From the NCBI GenBank assembly GCA_037576195.1, contig CM075102.1, positions 26,718,745-26,782,744 of the forward strand: 64,000 bases of DNA. The letters are read 5' to 3'. Origin of the DNA: Phytoseiulus persimilis. Lineage: Eukaryota; Arthropoda; Arachnida; Mesostigmata; Phytoseiidae. Each line of letters opens with the position of its first letter. The stretch's first letter is position 1. A program made the position numbers and the translations under genes. The notes beneath the pieces were generated by a model. The model ran no database searches. It was not told the DNA's origin and worked only from the letters and a program-made list of their open reading frames with translations. Positions 1-8,900 of this stretch are shown here, piece by piece.

Positions 1-133
1 CTTGGAGAGGGGACATCGAAGCGAGAAGCACCGCGATCACTGGGCTGTCGCTCAGTGCTGAACGAGCAGCCTCGGTGGAGGAAGACATGCGACAGAGAAA
101 TGCTTCCTCACATTCGACTCGTCTTTTTGCTAG

Positions 134-3100
134 GGATCGGGAGCTTCGAGCCGGAAGTTTCCATCGAGCCCCAGCTGGATGATCTGATGTACGTGGTTGC
201 ACTTGGGAGTCAGGCCAGACTTCTGTGCCTTCCACCTGAAGGAGCGCCTCCACCGAAATGGTACTGGACGCTGCCCACTGGCTCTGTCGTTTCGGATGCC
301 GGTCGTGTCAAAGTGAACGAGGAATCCGAGTTGCAGATTGATCATGTGAAACTAGAAGATGCAGGCAACTACTCCTGCAACGCGGAAAACATTGCAGCCA
401 AACGAACCTTGACTGTGCAACTGGTTGTGACAAGTGAGTATGAACGACTTCAGACATCCAGCGGGACTTTACTAAAATAGCAGAATTTTTTCGGGCTGGG
501 AAGGGATGCACGGGGTGAACGAACCCTTTGCTTAGAGAGCCATCCGAGGTTTTCCGAGACTAGGCCATCAGGTATGTAGGGTACATTTCAGAACCTAACG
601 AATCTGCAGGGTCGTTTCTTTGACGACGTTCTTCCCTCCAGCTCGGACCGCGGAATGACCTTAGTCTAATTTGCTTGAGCATTTTCGGAGCGGTGCCCGG
701 TGGAGTTTTAATTCGCTCAAACTTTTCACCCAGTTCCTCCTCGGTGCAGATCTACCTGATTCTCGGAAGCGAGAACTTTTCCCTCGTACTAACGTGATGC
801 GAGGGAGCATATTCATTACTCCAACCGACAGGGGACGTAGCGCTCAAGGTTGCTCCATTGTCGCCCATGATCAGCGGTCACGCGCAATTCTTGATTGAGC
901 GGAAAGGGCGAAGTTTGGACCCTAATTTTTTTTTTCGGAGTCGGATGTTTTCCCTCTGTCCAGATAAGGACGCAAGCACGCACAACCGTATTGCGCAGTC
1001 TCGAAGTGAGTGGCGCGGCTATTGTAAAAAGTAGTTGATCCTCCTCCTGAGGGTGGGTAGAGTGGATCTGGAACGATATCCCATTTATAACGGCCATTAC
1101 CCCCGCGCCGACTGGAATACCTCGTGCCCCGTAGTGGGGGCAGTGCGACGGCAACGGCCGCGGCTTCTCATGAGTTCATTTTGTCTGTAGGCTTTTGCGG
1201 TGGGCGCCGAGCACGTATGAAGCCACCACGAAATAGAAAACACAATTTCATCACTGTAACCGGTCCGTCCGCCTGCCCGTCCTACTACCACCAGGCGGTC
1301 CAGTCAGTCCGTCAAAGCCGAGTCGCAAGCGTGTAGGGGTACAAATTCAGCTCCGGAATGCGACTCAGATCACTGGAGCAGATAGCACGAAACACGGGTC
1401 GTTCTCAATTTTACACTTCTCGTCTGTTTCAGCGCCCCCCGAAGTACATGACCATATCAGCAGTAAACTGCAGCTTCACGAAGGAACATCCCATGTGCTC
1501 AAGTGTTCGTTCAGAGCGGCAGCTTGGCCACTCACATCTGTTACGTGGACTAACGTAGATTCGCCCATGATGACTTTGGATTTCGATCCGGAGAAAGGTG
1601 CTCTGAATTTGAAGAATATCACGATGAGAGACGCGGGCAAATATCTTTGTTCCGTCTCTTCAAAAGGATTCCCCACGGTGATGTCGAAACCTGTCGTAGT
1701 CGAAGTGATCGGTGAGTGAAATTGGAAATGCAAAAATACCCCCTCCCTACCTCTCTCACTCTTCAAATTGCTGCGAAGCTCTGTTCTCCGTCCGTGTCCC
1801 GCTTCCGGTTACTAAGAAAAGATTCCCGCAAAGGGAGAACTCCCCATCTTGGACGGAATACGAACAGGGACTTCTGAGATTAAGATTATCGAAGAGAAAG
1901 ACAAGGGGATCATTAGAGAGACAAATGAAGCGGGGTGTACTCCTCTCCGTTCTGCTCATCCACTGCTCCCCCCTGGAAGAAGGAGGGGATCGGAAGACGA
2001 GCTGCAGCGCCCGAGGACGACCTTACAGGACGTCTTTTCTGACTCCTAATTCGCTTCCCGCGGGTTCGCACCGATTTCTCTGCTCTCGAATAGCCTTTCC
2101 CGACATGATACCCCGTAAACTGCCCCGCAAACATTTACTCTCGATGCGGCTAACTGCTGCTCTTCCTGAGGCGGGAATCGGACTGAGTTCGGAAACCGAT
2201 TTCACCTGCGTGAGAGAGCTTGCTTCTACTCGAACCGGGCTAATTATTTCTCTAAACTCTCGTGCAGCCCACCCTAGAGTCAATAGACTTCTAGTCTGTG
2301 TGCCCTTATCGAGTTCCAGATCGAGGAGAGTCGCGTTGCGTCGAGATTCCCTTTCTAGCCTAATCATCCGAGAATTCCGTTCTCGCACGTTGCTGAGACT
2401 CTCAATGCGCATTTTCAGAAAAGCTCAAATTCTACCCCGTGCCAATGAACACAAATCTCGAATTCAAAAGCGTTGGTCGGATTCCGTGCAGATCGAGAGG
2501 CGCCCAACGCGCGACAGTGAGATGGGCTAAAGTGAATCCAGATGACGAGCAGCGATCAATACCACTGCCGACGAATCTACGACAGGTATCCAGAAGATTC
2601 CTTCCCCGTATCGTAATATGAAGGACCACGTATTATGATGAGTATCACATTCCCGCTAGTGTTTCACACTGGAGGAACTGGATTCTCGAAGAATAATAAT
2701 AAATCATGAGGCATTTTCGTATAGGAAAATAATGTGCTCATCTTCGAGCCTGTTACTTATGACGATGGTGGGAAATACCGTTGTATGGCTTCAACAGGGA
2801 CAGAGTCCATCAACGTGACAATAACCGTGACTGTTGGTGGTAAGTTCCCCTGGCAAGGGTCGAGTTAGTGACTCTCGCTTCAGCTTGGAACTCCATGTGC
2901 TCGGAAGCTATGAATTAACCGCGAATTCACTTCCAAGTATCGCCACGCTTCACCGTATTCCCAAACTCAACCGAAGTCCTCGAAGGCCACTCCGTCTGGC
3001 TGAATTGTCAAGCTGAAGGCGATCCGGAGCCTCACATCCATTGGGACCGCAACTCAAGAGCGAATTCTCTCTCTCATGAATCGCCACGAATTCAAATTCT

Positions 3101-5014
3101 ACACAATGGTGGGCGACTTGAGGAATCCTCTCTTGATCTGTCTCGATTATTAATTTTCCCCCTCTATTCGGGGGGCATCATCGTTTCTCAAACCATTCGT
3201 CGACGTCGTATCCTTGTTTTTGAGTCCCATGGTTCCTGACGACATTTCAATGTTCTCTCGCAGGGACCCTTTTCATTCAAGAGGCCTACATGAGGGACAC
3301 GGGGCAGTACGGCTGTACAGCTGGCAACCGCGGAGGTTTCAATCGAACTGAGGTCTCGCTTGTCGTCGGATCTTCAAAAGATTTCGTACCTTCGTACAAT
3401 CTTTCAGGAGATTCAGGCGACGAGACCATGTCTACGACGATCGGGCTCACGTTGGGGGCCGCAGGCGTCTACATGATTCTCGTTCTTTCTCTGATGTTGT
3501 ACTGCCGAGTAAGGAGAGCCCGTAGGAAGACGGCTTTGCTGGGCAGTAGATCGAAAGGTACGTTCACAGGATCGACGTCCGGCTCATAATAAGTGAATTT
3601 TTTGGACGCGGCACGGCGCTCCACGCAGTGTCACGTTAGCTCGCGAGTCAGAACACTCGAGTAACTCGACATTTTGTTGCAGGAATCGGCTCAGATGAAG
3701 AGAACCGACTCGACGGTCCTGTGGGCTCTGGAGAACTACAGAGTAATAAGCTCTTGCCGTCAGCGGGCTCCTCGGAATCAGGATCAGTCACATCAAAGAA
3801 CAGCAAACCGTCTGTTGAAAGATTGCATTTCCCTAGGAAAGATCTCAGTACGATTATGCTCTTGGGCCGAGGTGATTTTGGAGACGTGTACCTCGCGAAA
3901 GCAGCCGGTGAGGACAATGACGACCGTTTCTCTTCGCTCTCAACTCTAAGATCTTATATCCCCTGGCGCTCCCCCACCAGAATGAGCATGGTGGATGATA
4001 GATGTTTATCCGATTCCCAAAGAAACGGAGCGCGATCGTTGTTTGGTCATCGTTTGTCAGCTGTGTTCCTTCTCCAGGCATCGCAGAAGAAACTGTTATG
4101 GTGAAGTCGCTTCACTCGCAGGAGGAGTCGACGAAGATGGAATTTCGTCGCCAAGCAGAAATGTTCACGAAATTGAATCATCAGGGCATTTGCAGAGTGG
4201 TCGGCATGTGCGCCGAAACCGAACCTCTCCTCGTGATGTACGACTACACGGATTGGGGAGATCTGAAACGGTTCCTTGCAGCAACTAGAAGAGATGCTCC
4301 GTCTACCCAAGGAAGCCACCCTCCTCCATTGACAACAGCTCAATGCATGGGGGTTTGTCATCAGGTCGCCCTTGCGATGGAATATCTATCGAATCATCGA
4401 TTCATTCACAAAGATTTGGCGGCTCGCAATTGTCTGGTCACGTCGAAGCTCGACGTTAAAATATCGAGCCCCAGTTTGAGCAAGGGTAAGTCGAACCCAT
4501 GGCTGATTGAACACAGTCTCGCACTGCTGCAGAATCGTCCCACCTGCCCTCAGTGGTGCGGTCATGAGGACATGAAAATCCGGAGCGCCTGGCGTCGTGC
4601 AAAAATCTCGTCCTCCCCCCTCATGTTTTTGAGGTGGTTCTCAGGCGTACTTTTTTTACAGACACATACTCTGCCGAATATTTTCACTACCGCGACCAGC
4701 TGGTTCCATTGAAATGGGCGCCGGCCGAGGCGGTAATCGAAGATCAGTGGAGTTCAAAGAGCGACGTCTACGCCTACGCCGTCTTCTGTTGGGAAGTCTT
4801 CACCCAGGCTCAGATGCCCCACGAGGACATTTCGAACCCCGACTTCTTGTATCGACTCGAAGTCCACGAAATCCAATGGGAGCCACCACCGAAATGCCCT
4901 CCAGCCATGCAGGCCCTCATGAGGTCCTGTTGGAGGACCCTGGTCACTGACAGACCTTCGTTTAGTGAGATCAGTTCCCAAGTGGGAAAGATATTCGTTG
5001 ACACGAATGTGTAG
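134..5014 (+). CDS. PTK7: PTK7/off-track pseudokinase receptor, 3' part of gene (nine exons)
   Basis: Single-pass membrane pseudokinase of Wnt/planar cell polarity signalling. Exons read here: 134-433, 1433-1711, 2419-2585, 2725-2839, 2938-3108, 3264-3557, 3683-3907, 4078-4485, 4662-5014. All have GT/AG borders and matching phases, giving about 769 residues; the 5' end is outside the window. Exons 1, 2, 3+4 and 5+6 each make an Ig domain (Cys, Trp, then D-x-G-x-Y-x-C, e.g. EDAGNYSC). A hydrophobic helix lies near 3440-3505, followed by Arg-rich stop-transfer residues. In the kinase domain the glycine loop GRGDFG (3865-3882) and the beta3 Lys in VMVK (4104-4106) are present. The catalytic loop is HKDLAARN (from 4407), and the DFG position reads SPS (4467-4475), so phosphotransfer is unlikely. 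Domain order, the ISSPSLSK region and the closing RPSFSEI motif match the PTK7 family, whose vertebrate members also lack DFG. Vertebrate PTK7 has seven Ig domains, so about three may lie upstream. The stop is TAG at 5012. Confidence 0.95.
434..1432 (+). other. PTK7: PTK7 intron, 999 nt
   Basis: Longest visible intron of the gene, between the first two visible Ig exons. It starts with the consensus donor GTGAGTAT and ends after a pyrimidine-rich tract at CTGTTTCAG. I see no embedded gene, repeat or RNA. Short open frames on both strands show no recognisable protein features. Confidence 0.85.
1712..2418 (+). other. PTK7: PTK7 intron, 707 nt, with a long open frame
   Basis: Intron between the second and third visible Ig domains, from donor GTGAGTGA to acceptor ATTTTCAG. 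One plus-strand frame is open from the donor right through the intron and into the next exon, in a frame different from that of the PTK7 protein. The first ATG of that frame is at 1925. It is described under findings; I do not call it a gene. Confidence 0.85.
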
Positions 5015-5383
5015 AACTCGATCAAGGCCAAAGCTAGCCACATCAAGAAGCACCGCCATCGAAGCAAGAAACGAAAGCACTCCAAAGATGCGCAGACCAC
5101 AACCGGAACCCATCGAGACTCCAAAGATCGCGAGAGGAGTCACTCAAAACATCGGTCACGCTCGAAGTTTAACTTCAAAACACGTCGTGCGAAGTCTTTG
5201 AGTCACTACCACCAGGACGCTTCCGTGTACAACTCTCCATTTTCAGCGCAACCATCTCCATTGCATTTTCATGTTCGAATGAGCAATCATTCGTCCCCTT
5301 CGCATTCGTACCTCACGTCGACGACTCTTTTGGCGGGTCATGGACTTTTGGACTCGGAGCCCAGACTCACGCCGTATGTGTGA
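5015..5383 (+). CDS. In-frame 122-codon extension after the PTK7 UAG stop (possible readthrough)
   Basis: The frame of the last PTK7 exon stays open for 122 codons after the TAG at 5012-5014 and ends at TGA 5381-5383. I checked every codon and found no other stop. The translation is not random-looking. It starts with basic clusters (KKHRHRSKKRKHSK at extension residues 11-24 and KHRSRSK at 45-51), which resemble nuclear localisation or RS-type sequence. A Ser/His/Pro/Tyr-rich tail follows and ends LTPYV. Family members normally end just after the kinase domain, which matches the TAG. The extension could be reached by stop readthrough, by an unseen alternative splice, or because TAG is a recent nonsense allele. 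It could also be chance, though the residue bias argues against that. I saw no plausible intron skipping the TAG: the only close donor/acceptor pair would be about 34 nt apart. Confidence 0.5.
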   Translation, partial: NSIKAKASHIKKHRHRSKKRKHSKDAQTTTGTHRDSKDRERSHSKHRSRSKFNFKTRRAKSLSHYHQDASVYNSPFSAQPSPLHFHVRMSNHSSPSHSYLTSTTLLAGHGLLDSEPRLTPYV

Positions 5384-6527
5384 AAATGTTATTATTGAAC
5401 CAGTTAGAATACGGCTTCCCTGTGCGCTTTCACGACACCGTGCTGCTTTCCTAGAACCGAATCCACCCTCCCCGAAGTGACCTCTCCCAATCGAGCTCAT
5501 AGAGCTGGCCTCGTAGTTCTCCCGCAATGGGCACCTCCTGAAATTCCCGCTTAGATCATACTGGTTCTCAATGTAATTAAGTGATGTACAGAAGAGACTG
5601 AATTCACAACCGAAAATCAAAATCCATATACACCTAAGCTTCACGCAGCACACCGCTGTCCAAGGAAAAAGTTGCTCCCCGGTATGCAAATCCCACGTGG
5701 ACTCCCGCGTTCAAAAGTATCCGTGCCAAACTCCCAAGCACTAGTTGAATAATCAGAACGAATCATGGAGCCGACAGTGAGTTTATTCAGGTGTATCTTG
5801 GTACAGACTATAAATAGCACGCTGAGATGATTTGTATGTTTTTCTGTGTATTTTTCTACTTCATTCTGGGAGAGAAGGTTCAACAATCCATTGATCGATG
5901 CGTGACCTGCATCTAACAATCGACCGAGAAAGAAGAGCTATCTGGAGGTGTGAATTGAGAGGAGCGACTGAGGAAAAACCCGGTCTCTTCTCTTCGCCGT
6001 GTGTAATGGTGTCCCCGGGAACAATGTTCTCTCGAAAGACGGTTCATCATTAAATCATCAGAACAAGCCAAGAGCTGAAGAAAACGGAGGAAAATAAGTT
6101 TCCAGCATTCCCATTGTGCCATACGGACCGGCTGGTTCTTGACGGAACACGTCTGAGCCCGTTTTACATAAACGTGGATGAAAAATGTCAAATAAAGTTT
6201 AGGGTCAACGTTCCGAAGCTTCGAGCGCTCTTGGAAAGAAAATCTCCACTCAATTTGTCACGATTGTGTACTGTATATAAACCTGAAAATTTCGCGATGC
6301 ATGCTGTCGGAATCATTCCCGAAGGTGCGCATGAAAATTTGTGAGACCTTGGCGAACGCATTTTCAAATAAACAGGAACCGTTTTCATCTAATCGACTCC
6401 AGTGCTCGTAGTGAGTTATGATCCAATAACGCGGCTCTGAGGCATCGGAAGCTCCTTCCTGAGTCTTCCAAGCGAGTTGAAGCTCTCCGGGATGAAGCTT
6501 CATTGAGGTTCAGAGTGTTAACATTTC

Positions 6528-7013: not shown

Positions 7014-8900
7014 CTATAGACTCGCTTCACAACTGAACTTGATCCTTTTGAGGCTCAGAGAGTCCAATAACAAACATTTCAATCCAAAACCACAGTTCTG
7101 GAGAGCTGCCGGAAGATGCTCCGTGGCCACGTGCGGATAGAAACTCTCCGGTTCACTCGGGCTGCATGAAGCAGTGATCATAGCCTCGACGACGACGTTA
7201 TGAACACCCGCTGGATAGACCAGGTAGCCTTCGCGGTGCACATGGAAAGTCTCTTCCAGAACTTTGTAGCTGGCTTCTTTCAGATCAATGATCTCTCTGT
7301 CAACCCCGGTAGGCGTCAGATGTCTCGGCGGCATGTACGTATGGAAATAGACGAATTTCCCGCTCTCTAAAGTGTTCATCTGCATTGGAACCACTCCTGC
7401 TTGATGCGCTAGTGCGTAGAAAACGAACATGTAAATGTTGAAGGCGTACCACATCCCACAGAAACGATCCGACTGTGTCAGTTTCAGGGCATTTCTAAGA
7501 GCAAACGGTATCAGTAGGGGCAGAAGGAATCTTGGTTCTTGGTGGGGGAAAACCGATAACATGAGCAAAGGGACGATAGTACACATGTGCAAAGAGAACT
7601 TCTCAATGATGAAGTTTTCGCGCTTCAGGATCAATCTATAAATATCCCGATAAATATACATAGAATGTAGTCCGAACAGTAGAGGAATATTTATCGCGAA
7701 GTGGAGCCAGCGCTGATGAAGTCCGTGGTTCGCGAGATTATCGCTGTCACTGTTGTACAAGAGGAAGTTGAGAGGGGTGATGACCAGGTTGGCTTTGGGA
7801 TCCGCCAGGAATTCGTCGAGACCCTTGTAGTAGACAGAGTCGACAGCGATAAGCAGACAGCATGGCGGAATAGCGTACAGTGACATGCGAATGCATACCA
7901 GTAAGAAGTTTTTGAAAGTATTCGTCGAGTAAAACCGGAAGAAAAATGGCGTCAGAGCGTAGCACACAAATGTTGGTCGGTTGAAGATCCCACAAACTAT
8001 CACTGTCACGTACAATAGCTCCGACGAGCACGGATGGAACACCGGTTTGTGACGCTTTGAAGATGGTTCAGGTGCTGTGGTTCCATGTTCTGGCTTGACG
8101 GAATCGGGATTCCCGTCCCCTGAGAATTCAACTGTTCTCTCCTGTGAACTCTCCGTGTTTTCGGTGTCTGCTGCCGTAGGCTCATCGACAGCCTCGCGGT
8201 GTTTGCTCACCGGGAACGACAGGAAGATGAGCAAAGCGAACAGCACCGTTTCTGTTACATTGCTGAACGTTCTCGTGAAGTAAGCCATGGCTAAATATGA
8301 GGTTGCAACAACCTTCAATGCCGGTGCACCACGTATTTTGTAAACAACGTAGTCGACGATGAACGATAATATGCTGGCTACTAGCCGAGGTAGAACTAGT
8401 CTAAGATACGCCGTGCTGCCGACTAAAGCGAGAACTTTGAAAGGGAAGTACGCAAAAAGATGCACGAACACGGAGCATCGCAGAGGTTTGTCCGTCGTAA
8501 ATTCCCATGGCCTATAGGAGTCTGTTTCGAGAATTTCGCCGGCTGTGATCTCCGTTGATTGGAAAAACTCGTCTGGATGAATGTAGCCGTTTTGTGGAAG
8601 GAAGACCCTGAATGGAAGACAACAGAAGTTCGCCATATTCTTTCAAGAATTCTGAAGAAGCTCGAGGAGTTGAGCGGCCGTATCAGTTTTAGTGTCAGTA
8701 TTTTGCTTGAAGATAAAATCAAGTTGAATGAGTTGAGAGTTGGAAGCTCGTGCTAGAGCATACTCAGGGTAGAACCAATCTCACCACCATACGCAAGAAC
8801 AATCGAGAGGATTGGAACGGCTTGGGAACGGATAGATTCCACCGGTGGCACAGCTTCGTACTTACAGAAGTACCCTCAGGATCAGGAGGAGTTTTGTCAT
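7014..8900 (-). CDS. PIGZ: GPI mannosyltransferase 4 (PIG-Z/SMP3), complete, two exons
   Basis: ER multi-membrane mannosyltransferase of family GT22. It adds the fourth, side-chain mannose to the GPI-anchor core from dolichol-phosphate mannose. Coding exons on the minus strand are 8866-8900 (ATG at 8900) and 7014-8607. The donor is GTAAGTAC and the acceptor CCATTCAG, and together they give 1629 nt, or 542 residues. Exon 1 supplies MTKLLLILRVLL, which joins directly to VFLPQNGYIHPDEFF. This restores the hydrophobic N-terminus seen in the family, so I prefer it to the in-frame ATG at 8636, which lies in the intron. Family marks are HPDE at residues 22-25 in the first lumenal loop, HGLH near 306 and HQEPRF near 367, with many hydrophobic helices. 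A charged variable loop near 140-200 is rich in Glu, Ser and Pro. Human PIGZ is slightly longer (about 579 residues). The frame has no internal stop. Confidence 0.92.

What the first reader, a model, noticed from the sequence alone, without database searches (positions are those of the whole stretch)
5012..5383. PTK7 stop codon followed by a 122-codon in-frame, NLS-like extension
Directly seen: TAG at 5012 ends PTK7 exactly where family members end, yet the same frame runs on for 122 sense codons to TGA at 5381. An open run this long has a chance probability well under 1% at this base composition. The encoded composition is strongly biased, with two Lys/Arg/His clusters and then a Ser/His/Pro/Tyr tail. 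Known biology: vertebrate PTK7 is shed by proteases and cut by gamma-secretase, and its cytoplasmic fragment can enter the nucleus. Inference: leaky termination could yield a minor isoform with an added nuclear-targeting tail on the pseudokinase. The context UAG-A is not the classic leaky UGA-C context, so a splice alternative or a nonsense allele must be considered.
Basis: partly seen in the sequence, partly recalled or inferred. Interest (0 to 1): 0.85.

Follow-up and report, generated by a model that had tools for sequence, protein, structure and literature searches.

The report
Possible hidden tail on mite PTK7
Just past the normal stop signal of a Wnt co-receptor gene (PTK7) in what is probably a mite, the same reading frame stays open for 122 more codons and spells an unusually basic, protein-like tail that ribosomes might sometimes add by ignoring the stop; this is a credible but untested candidate, because no related species could be compared.

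Summary
A nine-exon PTK7 gene model (781 codons, four Ig domains, pseudokinase) ends at TAG 5012-5014, two residues beyond the match to human PTK7. The same frame then runs open for 122 codons to TGA 5381-5383. The stated chance (well under 1%) is too strong: stop triplets are scarce in this genome (3.3%), so it is about 1.6-1.9% genome-wide and 8-11% given the stretch's own base composition. The encoded residues are more telling: Ser/Lys/Arg/His make up 61 of 122, and 12 of 15 residues in one stretch are Lys/Arg/His. Scored over their first 122 codons, none of the other 337 such runs in 264 kb reaches these values, nor do 2,000 shuffles. A classless composition test ranks it 7th of 268, just above the run holding PTK7's own last exon; but an antisense frame of the same stretch deviates nearly as much. 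Codon-phase scores were uninformative. Against programmed readthrough: UAG-A context, no downstream RNA structure, no paralogue, and published tests finding no abundant readthrough outside Pancrustacea. Splicing round the TAG could save at most the last 44-55 codons, not the basic part. Best reading, about 0.43: low-level readthrough adds a basic, NLS-like tail. Untested in relatives, RNA or ribosome data.

The parts
100..5014 (+). PTK7/off-track-like gene, coding exons 100-433, 1433-1711, 2419-2585, 2725-2839, 2938-3108, 3264-3557, 3683-3907, 4078-4485, 4662-5014 (781 codons plus TAG)
   Evidence: One open spliced frame to the TAG (the script entered the frame at 88, Met at 100 is its fifth residue); Pfam: 4 Ig stretches and PK_Tyr_Ser-Thr E 1.8e-66; best solved relative human PTK7 6vg3, Drosophila otk 6s9f also matched. 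Start codon and splice sites are my choice, with no RNA evidence.
5012..5014 (+). TAG stop of PTK7, next base A
   Evidence: two residues after the end of the match to human PTK7
5015..5380 (+). 122-codon in-frame extension, Ser/Lys/Arg/His-rich
5045..5080 (+). First basic cluster KKHRHRSKKRKH with two K-K/R-X-K/R motifs (NLS-like)
   Evidence: motif consensus recalled, nuclear function not tested
5114..5203 (+). Second basic stretch (RDSKDRERSHSKHRSRSKFNFKTRRAKSLS)
5381..5383 (+). TGA that closes the extension
4991..5010 (+). Eight-pair hairpin with a four-base loop, ending one base before the TAG (upstream, not the usual place for a readthrough structure)
   Evidence: In the predicted fold, letters; whole-region z-score -0.35, so not exceptional
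5245..5246 (+). AG of a good 3' splice-like site inside the extension (exon start 5247); in phase with donors at 4485 or 4964, would bypass the TAG and keep the last 44 codons
   Evidence: Score 4.5 against -0.9 to 7.0 for the eight PTK7 acceptors; 1.9% of 16,614 AGs score as high, 1.17 per kb of one strand; tail length
5214..5215 (+). AG of a second, weaker 3' splice-like site (exon start 5216); in phase with donors at 4981 or 4732, would keep the last 55 codons
   Evidence: Score 2.3; donors 4.7 and 4.6 against 4.4 to 10.5 for the eight PTK7 donors; tail length
6191..6196 (+). First AATAAA downstream of the TAG (an ATTAAA lies at 6049), so the extension probably lies inside the PTK7 transcript

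Best explanation
The stretch 5015-5380 is probably translated as a minor C-terminal extension of PTK7 when a fraction of ribosomes read the UAG at 5012 as an amino acid. The tail is basic, poor in hydrophobic residues and probably disordered. It would add a nuclear-targeting or RNA/acid-binding segment to the pseudokinase, most usefully to the intracellular fragment freed by proteolysis. Shown: gene model, stop, open frame, unusual residue composition. Inferred: translation, mechanism (readthrough), disorder, nuclear role.
For: (1) The stop sits at about the end of human PTK7, as expected if an old stop was kept and sequence beyond it became coding; a stop lost and regained there is less simple (inference). 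(2) Residue make-up in frame 0 exceeds dinucleotide shuffles that also keep the frame open: S+K+R+H 61 against 41.9 +/- 4.9, K+R+H 39 against 25.6, H 14 against 5.6, best 15-residue window 12 against 6.7 (0, 4, 1 and 0 of 2,000 shuffles reach these), hydrophobic 22 against 31 (P 0.0055). (3) Among 338 open runs of 122 or more codons in 264 kb, each scored on its first 122 codons, it is the only one at these values. (4) A classless composition statistic gives 51.8 against a null mean of 18.2, 0 of 1,000, while the following 366 bases and a long intron frame are ordinary (P 0.28 and 0.21). It ranks 7th of 268 runs scored; of the six above, three lie in or almost wholly in a 45-nt tandem array, one is antisense to the Med1 gene and two lie in L015, without a Pfam match; the run holding PTK7's last exon is 8th. 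(5) Position-in-codon chi-square is 17.5, P 0.015 against shuffles, within the 10.1-20.1 of four PTK7 exons and above the 1.2-9.4 of eight intron windows. (6) No tandem repeat explains the composition, and repeated residues use varied codons (sequence). [quoted passage not shown]
Against: UAG followed by A is not a favoured context: UGA makes up 61-76% and a following C 49-63% of the candidates tallied in fly and mosquito (PMC5100048, section 11). RNA folding is ordinary (z 0.04 downstream; -0.35 around the stop). Phase-specific coding score not raised (P 0.31, against 0.0025-0.021 for three real exons), though that test also fails on the Lys/Ser-rich part of Med1 (P 0.665). Synonymous codon choice says nothing. 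No paralogue (best other match E 0.38). The K/R/H classes were chosen after seeing the sequence; K+R alone (P 0.099) and S alone (P 0.066) are not unusual. Other frames of the stretch deviate too: antisense frame 2 49.4, 0 of 1,000; frame 1 and antisense frame 0, P 0.015 each; so the signal is not wholly frame-specific. Two of four known PTK7 exons do not pass the same composition test (P 0.079 and 0.18), so it is no clean coding test. The runs ranked 9 to 11 (49.8, 49.3, 46.9) come close and hold no Pfam family over its cut-off. 37 of 338 runs, coding ones included, have as high a chi-square. No abundant readthrough outside Pancrustacea in published tests.
Confidence: 0.43

Rival explanations
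1. Chance: the frame is open 3' UTR, not translated to any purpose. The region is poor in T, so stops are few and Lys/Arg/His/Ser codons are favoured.
For: Stops are rare in this genome (3.34% of triplets) and 338 of 17,513 stop triplets are followed by runs this long; shuffles of the stretch stay open in 7.6-11.2%; the first 122 bases have 8% T; T is not depleted at codon position 1 (29, 18, 30 at positions 1, 2, 3); phase score ordinary; an antisense frame deviates in composition nearly as much as frame 0. At this rate a genome with many thousand genes (number not known here) would hold a hundred or more such runs.
Against: Residue composition in frame 0 goes well beyond what base and dinucleotide content give and is unmatched in the first 122 codons of 338 open runs.
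Confidence: 0.32
2. Splicing: another transcript bypasses the TAG, from the donor at 4485 or 4964 to the acceptor at 5247, or from 4981 or 4732 to 5216, giving PTK7 forms that keep the last 44 or 55 residues of the extension.
For: Acceptor 5247 scores 4.5, like real ones; acceptor 5216 scores 2.3; phases fit the named donors; donors 4981 (4.7) and 4732 (4.6) lie at the low end of the real ones. The pair 4981-5216 would lose only the last ten residues of PTK7.
Against: All these leave out the basic part, which is the part most unlike chance (half 1: 51.2, 0 of 1,000; half 2: 29.4, P 0.028). No AG between 4990 and 5215 scores above zero; the AG of the TAG itself scores -2.6. Donor 4964 (3.6) is below all eight real ones. 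About one acceptor as good as 5247 is expected per kb anyway. My splice scores use recalled consensus values, not a trained model.
Confidence: 0.1
3. The mRNA or the allele differs from this assembly: adenosine editing of UAG to UGG, a nonsense allele, or an assembly error, with the long form as the usual protein.
For: U before and G after the A is a neighbourhood that ADAR enzymes favour (recalled); editing of an amber codon extending a protein is known in other systems (recalled).
Against: The stop coincides with the end of human PTK7, which a random new stop would not. No strong duplex in 4600-6000 or 4862-5162 (the introns upstream were not searched). Only one copy of the locus in the assembly, so no second allele to compare.
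Confidence: 0.1
4. The stretch is an exon of another gene or an antisense product.
For: Antisense frame 2 also deviates in composition; long antisense open frames overlap.
Against: Antisense frames of the stretch carry 3, 6 and 7 stops; no Pfam family reaches its cut-off; the next long frame downstream, PIG-B-like by my naming, lies on the other strand at 7014-8642.
Confidence: 0.05

Closest known systems
Functional stop-codon readthrough extensions of Drosophila and Anopheles (Jungreis 2016, PMC5100048; Dunn 2013, PMC3840789)
   Same: Ordinary first stop, open in-frame second ORF; extensions can carry working NLSs
   Different: Here no conservation or ribosome data; UAG-A rather than the commoner UGA and following C; no downstream RNA structure; probably not an insect, and abundant readthrough was not found outside Pancrustacea
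PTK7 / off-track (Otk) Wnt co-receptor pseudokinases
   Same: Ig ectodomain, one transmembrane-like segment, pseudokinase at the end of the protein; best solved relative is human PTK7
   Different: Four Ig stretches here, against seven in human PTK7 (PMC4007575 passages name Ig1-Ig7); that human PTK7 has no tail beyond the kinase is recalled
Amber-codon extensions by readthrough or editing (Drosophila synapsin; recalled, not looked up)
   Same: UAG separating two open frames in one mRNA
   Different: Not tested here

Membership tests
PTK7/off-track family | Ig domains, transmembrane segment and PTK7-type pseudokinase, best match PTK7 | tested here: met
   4 Ig stretches plus kinase domain in Pfam; best solved match human PTK7 E 4.1e-84, otk E 3.7e-48; transmembrane segment read from the sequence only; catalytic residues not analysed
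Functional stop-codon readthrough genes | Long in-frame open frame after the stop, beyond chance | tested here: inconclusive
   122 codons; chance 1.6-1.9% genome-wide, 7.6-11.2% given local composition
Functional stop-codon readthrough genes | Coding-like composition of the second frame | tested here: inconclusive
   Residue composition far beyond shuffles and unmatched in the first 122 codons of 338 runs; but an antisense frame deviates too and the trained phase score is not raised, a score that also fails on a similar known exon
Functional stop-codon readthrough genes | Protein-coding conservation past the stop in relatives | not testable with these tools
   No relative of this genome is held; the last PTK7 exon has no confirmed homologue in genome contigs (0 of 18 stretches)
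Functional stop-codon readthrough genes | Favoured context (UGA, following C) or downstream RNA structure; frequent, not required | tested here: not met
   UAG AAC; fold z 0.04 and -0.35
Functional stop-codon readthrough genes | Ribosome footprints or peptides past the stop | not testable with these tools
   No such data here
Nuclear localisation signal (classical monopartite) | K-K/R-X-K/R motif and nuclear import of a cargo | tested here: inconclusive
   Motif present twice; import not tested

The most novel reading that the evidence does not exclude
A chelicerate keeps a regulated readthrough isoform of a Wnt co-receptor: the old PTK7 stop is leaky and, after proteolysis, the extended intracellular fragment carries its own nuclear signal, turning a membrane pseudokinase into a nuclear one without a new gene or exon. 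Functional readthrough would then reach beyond Pancrustacea and use a UAG without the known stimulators.
Probability: 0.2. Interest if true: 0.75.

Novelty: new member of a known kind. Interest (0 to 1): 0.48.

Why it matters
Abundant readthrough has been placed in insects and crustaceans only (PMC5100048, section 17). A verified case with a functional tail in a mite-like arthropod would widen the known range. It would also give a simple switch between membrane and nuclear roles of PTK7. If it is chance, it shows that open length after a stop is poor evidence in genomes where stop triplets are scarce.

Tried and rejected
Open length as proof: rejected, since 1.9% of stop triplets here are followed by as long a run and local shuffles are open in 7.6-11.2%.

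One search translated a wrong frame and was replaced. A coding model trained on the longest frames of the sample collapsed to three frames and was dropped. A coding set was then made from 18 of the 20 ABC-transporter loci (frames of at least 150 codons), the PIG-B-like frame and, for the phase score, two myosin exons. The synonymous-codon score does not separate PTK7 exons from other frames. The phase-specific score does so for three PTK7 exons tested but fails on the Lys/Ser-rich end of Med1, so its null result on the extension is not counted against coding. One search read some loci on the wrong strand and was replaced.

Repeats as the source of the composition: no tandem repeat in 4600-6400; only one 13-nt direct pair and one palindrome in 4600-6000. 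Paralogue or second copy: none. Pfam in the extension: only hits below the cut-offs, Transformer E 0.2 and MCM_bind E 0.61. Bacterial and archaeal genome contigs, searched with the last PTK7 exon: none confirmed. Papers: 0 hold both 'PTK7' and 'stop codon readthrough'; searches for readthrough with PTK7/off-track, mites, ticks and arachnids gave nothing to the point among the rows listed (15 of 33, 12 of 515, 8 of 19; listings only). Rank test: 70 of 338 runs could not be scored, because too few shuffles stayed open, and are left out of the 268. In one search only the first 122 codons of each run were scored; in sliding open windows 15 of 2,017 reach 61 S/K/R/H, all 15 in the Med1 frame of L019, a coding region, and 0 of 2,017 reach 12 K/R/H in 15 (the step missed the extension itself).

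Dropped for lack of data: conservation, RNA-seq, ribosome profiling, allele frequency. Structure prediction was not run: a single basic, low-complexity tail without an alignment would give a poor model.

Full report
What is there. The window lies in a 181-Mb genome in 127 contigs. Two contigs have known lengths of 54.7 and 52.0 Mb, and hits in two others reach at least 36 and 26 Mb. It is an arthropod: 112 matches to the cuticle family Chitin_bind_4. Insect odorant receptors gave no match, but that family rang in none of the 14 control genomes either, so the absence is weak. Size and four large contigs fit a predatory mite (recalled); the species is not known to me.

The gene. Nine exons, Met at 100 to TAG at 5014, give an unbroken 781-residue protein (exons chosen by eye and frame, no RNA evidence). 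It has four Ig stretches and a tyrosine-kinase-type domain. Human PTK7 pseudokinase is the best solved match, E 4.1e-84, and Drosophila otk matches the ectodomain. The match to human PTK7 runs to two residues before the TAG and to residue 295 of that 296-residue chain, so the stop is at about the place where human PTK7 ends.

The extension. The PTK7 frame continues for 122 codons, 5015-5380, then TGA. How surprising is the length? Stop triplets make up 3.34% of triplets in the window plus 20 sampled stretches of 10 kb, so 122 open codons have a chance of 1.6%; 338 of 17,513 stop triplets, coding stretches included, are followed by such a run. Shuffles that keep the dinucleotides of the stretch stay open in 7.6% (whole) or 11.2% (two halves), and in 1.4% if the wider 3' flank is the model. 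For 21 other long frames the in-frame run after the stop had a median of 11 and a maximum of 65 codons, and 0 of 21 reached 122; some of those stops may be intronic.

Composition. Among shuffles that keep blocks of about 60 bases, their dinucleotides and an open frame, 61 S/K/R/H residues, 39 K/R/H, 14 H and a 15-residue window with 12 K/R/H are reached by 0, 4, 1 and 0 of 2,000 (from the fractions). Hydrophobic residues are fewer than expected (22 against 31, P 0.0055). K+R alone (P 0.099) and S alone (P 0.066) are not unusual. These classes were named after seeing the sequence, so two controls follow. Of 338 open runs of 122 or more codons in 264 kb, scored on their first 122 codons, only this one reaches these values; among the rows shown the next best have 50 S/K/R/H, 35 K/R/H and 8 H. 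Deeper inside longer frames, 15 sliding windows of 2,017 reach 61 S/K/R/H, all in the Med1 gene of L019, a real coding region. And a statistic without chosen classes gives 51.8 against a null mean of 18.2 (0 of 1,000), with four PTK7 exons at 47.6, 27.9, 30.7 and 23.1 (P 0, 0.079, 0.04, 0.18) and the next 366 bases at 21.5 (P 0.28). In a ranking of 268 scorable runs (70 of 338 could not be scored) it is 7th with 57.4. Three of the six above lie in or almost wholly in a 45-nt tandem array, one is antisense to Med1, and two in L015 match no Pfam family. The run that holds PTK7's last exon is 8th (54.0); runs 9 to 11 (49.8, 49.3, 46.9) have no Pfam match over a cut-off and may be non-coding. Other frames of the stretch deviate too: antisense frame 2 gives 49.4 (0 of 1,000), frame 1 and antisense frame 0 give P 0.015. 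The signal is thus not wholly specific to frame 0. Frame 0 is the only one of the six that is open; the others have 2, 2, 3, 6 and 7 stops.

Codon phase. Position-specific base counts depart from uniform (chi-square 17.5; P 0.015 against shuffles; 6.3% of 1,060 genomic windows, and 37 of 338 open runs, coding ones included, reach it). A phase-specific score trained on ABC transporters, the PIG-B-like frame and two myosin exons is not raised (P 0.31, against 0.0075, 0.021 and 0.0025 for three PTK7 exons). A known basic/Ser-rich coding stretch, the end of Med1, also fails it (P 0.665; of the other six Med1 segments, five have P below 0.01 and one 0.09). That test therefore cannot judge this kind of tail. 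Synonymous choice is uninformative even for PTK7.

How it could be made. Readthrough: the stop context is UAG-A, folding downstream is ordinary (z 0.04), and an eight-pair hairpin ending one base before the stop (4991-5010) is part of an unexceptional fold (z -0.35). In fly and mosquito, 61-76% of the readthrough stops tallied are UGA and 49-63% are followed by C (PMC5100048 section 11). The same work finds no abundant readthrough outside Pancrustacea, with one arachnid and a centipede among the species tested, and warns that poor annotation can hide it (section 17). Splicing: no AG between 4990 and 5215 scores above zero as an acceptor; one at 5216 (2.3) fits in phase with donors 4981 and 4732, and a good one at 5247 (4.5) fits donors 4485 and 4964, but they keep only the last 55 or 44 codons and leave out the basic part; an acceptor as good as 5247 occurs about once per kb. 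Editing or an allele: cannot be tested here; one copy in the assembly.

What it could do. The tail holds KKHR and KKRK, which fit the classical NLS core (consensus recalled). The cytoplasmic fragment of human PTK7 is freed by gamma-secretase and is either degraded or moved to the nucleus (PMC4007575, passages). In Drosophila, 10 readthrough extensions of proteins not annotated as nuclear have predicted NLSs and 3 of 4 tested worked (PMC3840789 section 16); that section also says that a high proportion of random peptides confer function, so the motif is weak evidence of selection.

Verdict. A gene model without breaks, with an unusual, protein-like frame after its stop. The decisive evidence, relatives and ribosome data, could not be had here.

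Noticed in passing
window 1709-2530 (+): A 273-codon stop-free run that begins at the end of exon 2 and spans the following PTK7 intron and part of exon 3; its residue composition over the intron is ordinary. It shows how readily long open runs arise in this genome.
   Followed up: partly
window 5231-5247 (+): A good 3' splice-like site (AACTCTCCATTTTCAG) inside the extension, in phase with the donor of the last PTK7 intron (4485); possible alternative last exon.
   Followed up: partly
L012:7105-9126: A 45-nt tandem array of about 45 copies, with open frames of up to 393 codons on one strand and 345 on the other; repeat-protein gene or satellite not decided.
   Followed up: no
window 7014-8642 (-): A 542-codon stop-to-stop frame that looks like a GPI mannosyltransferase (PIG-B-like, my naming from the sequence), convergent with PTK7.
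   Followed up: no
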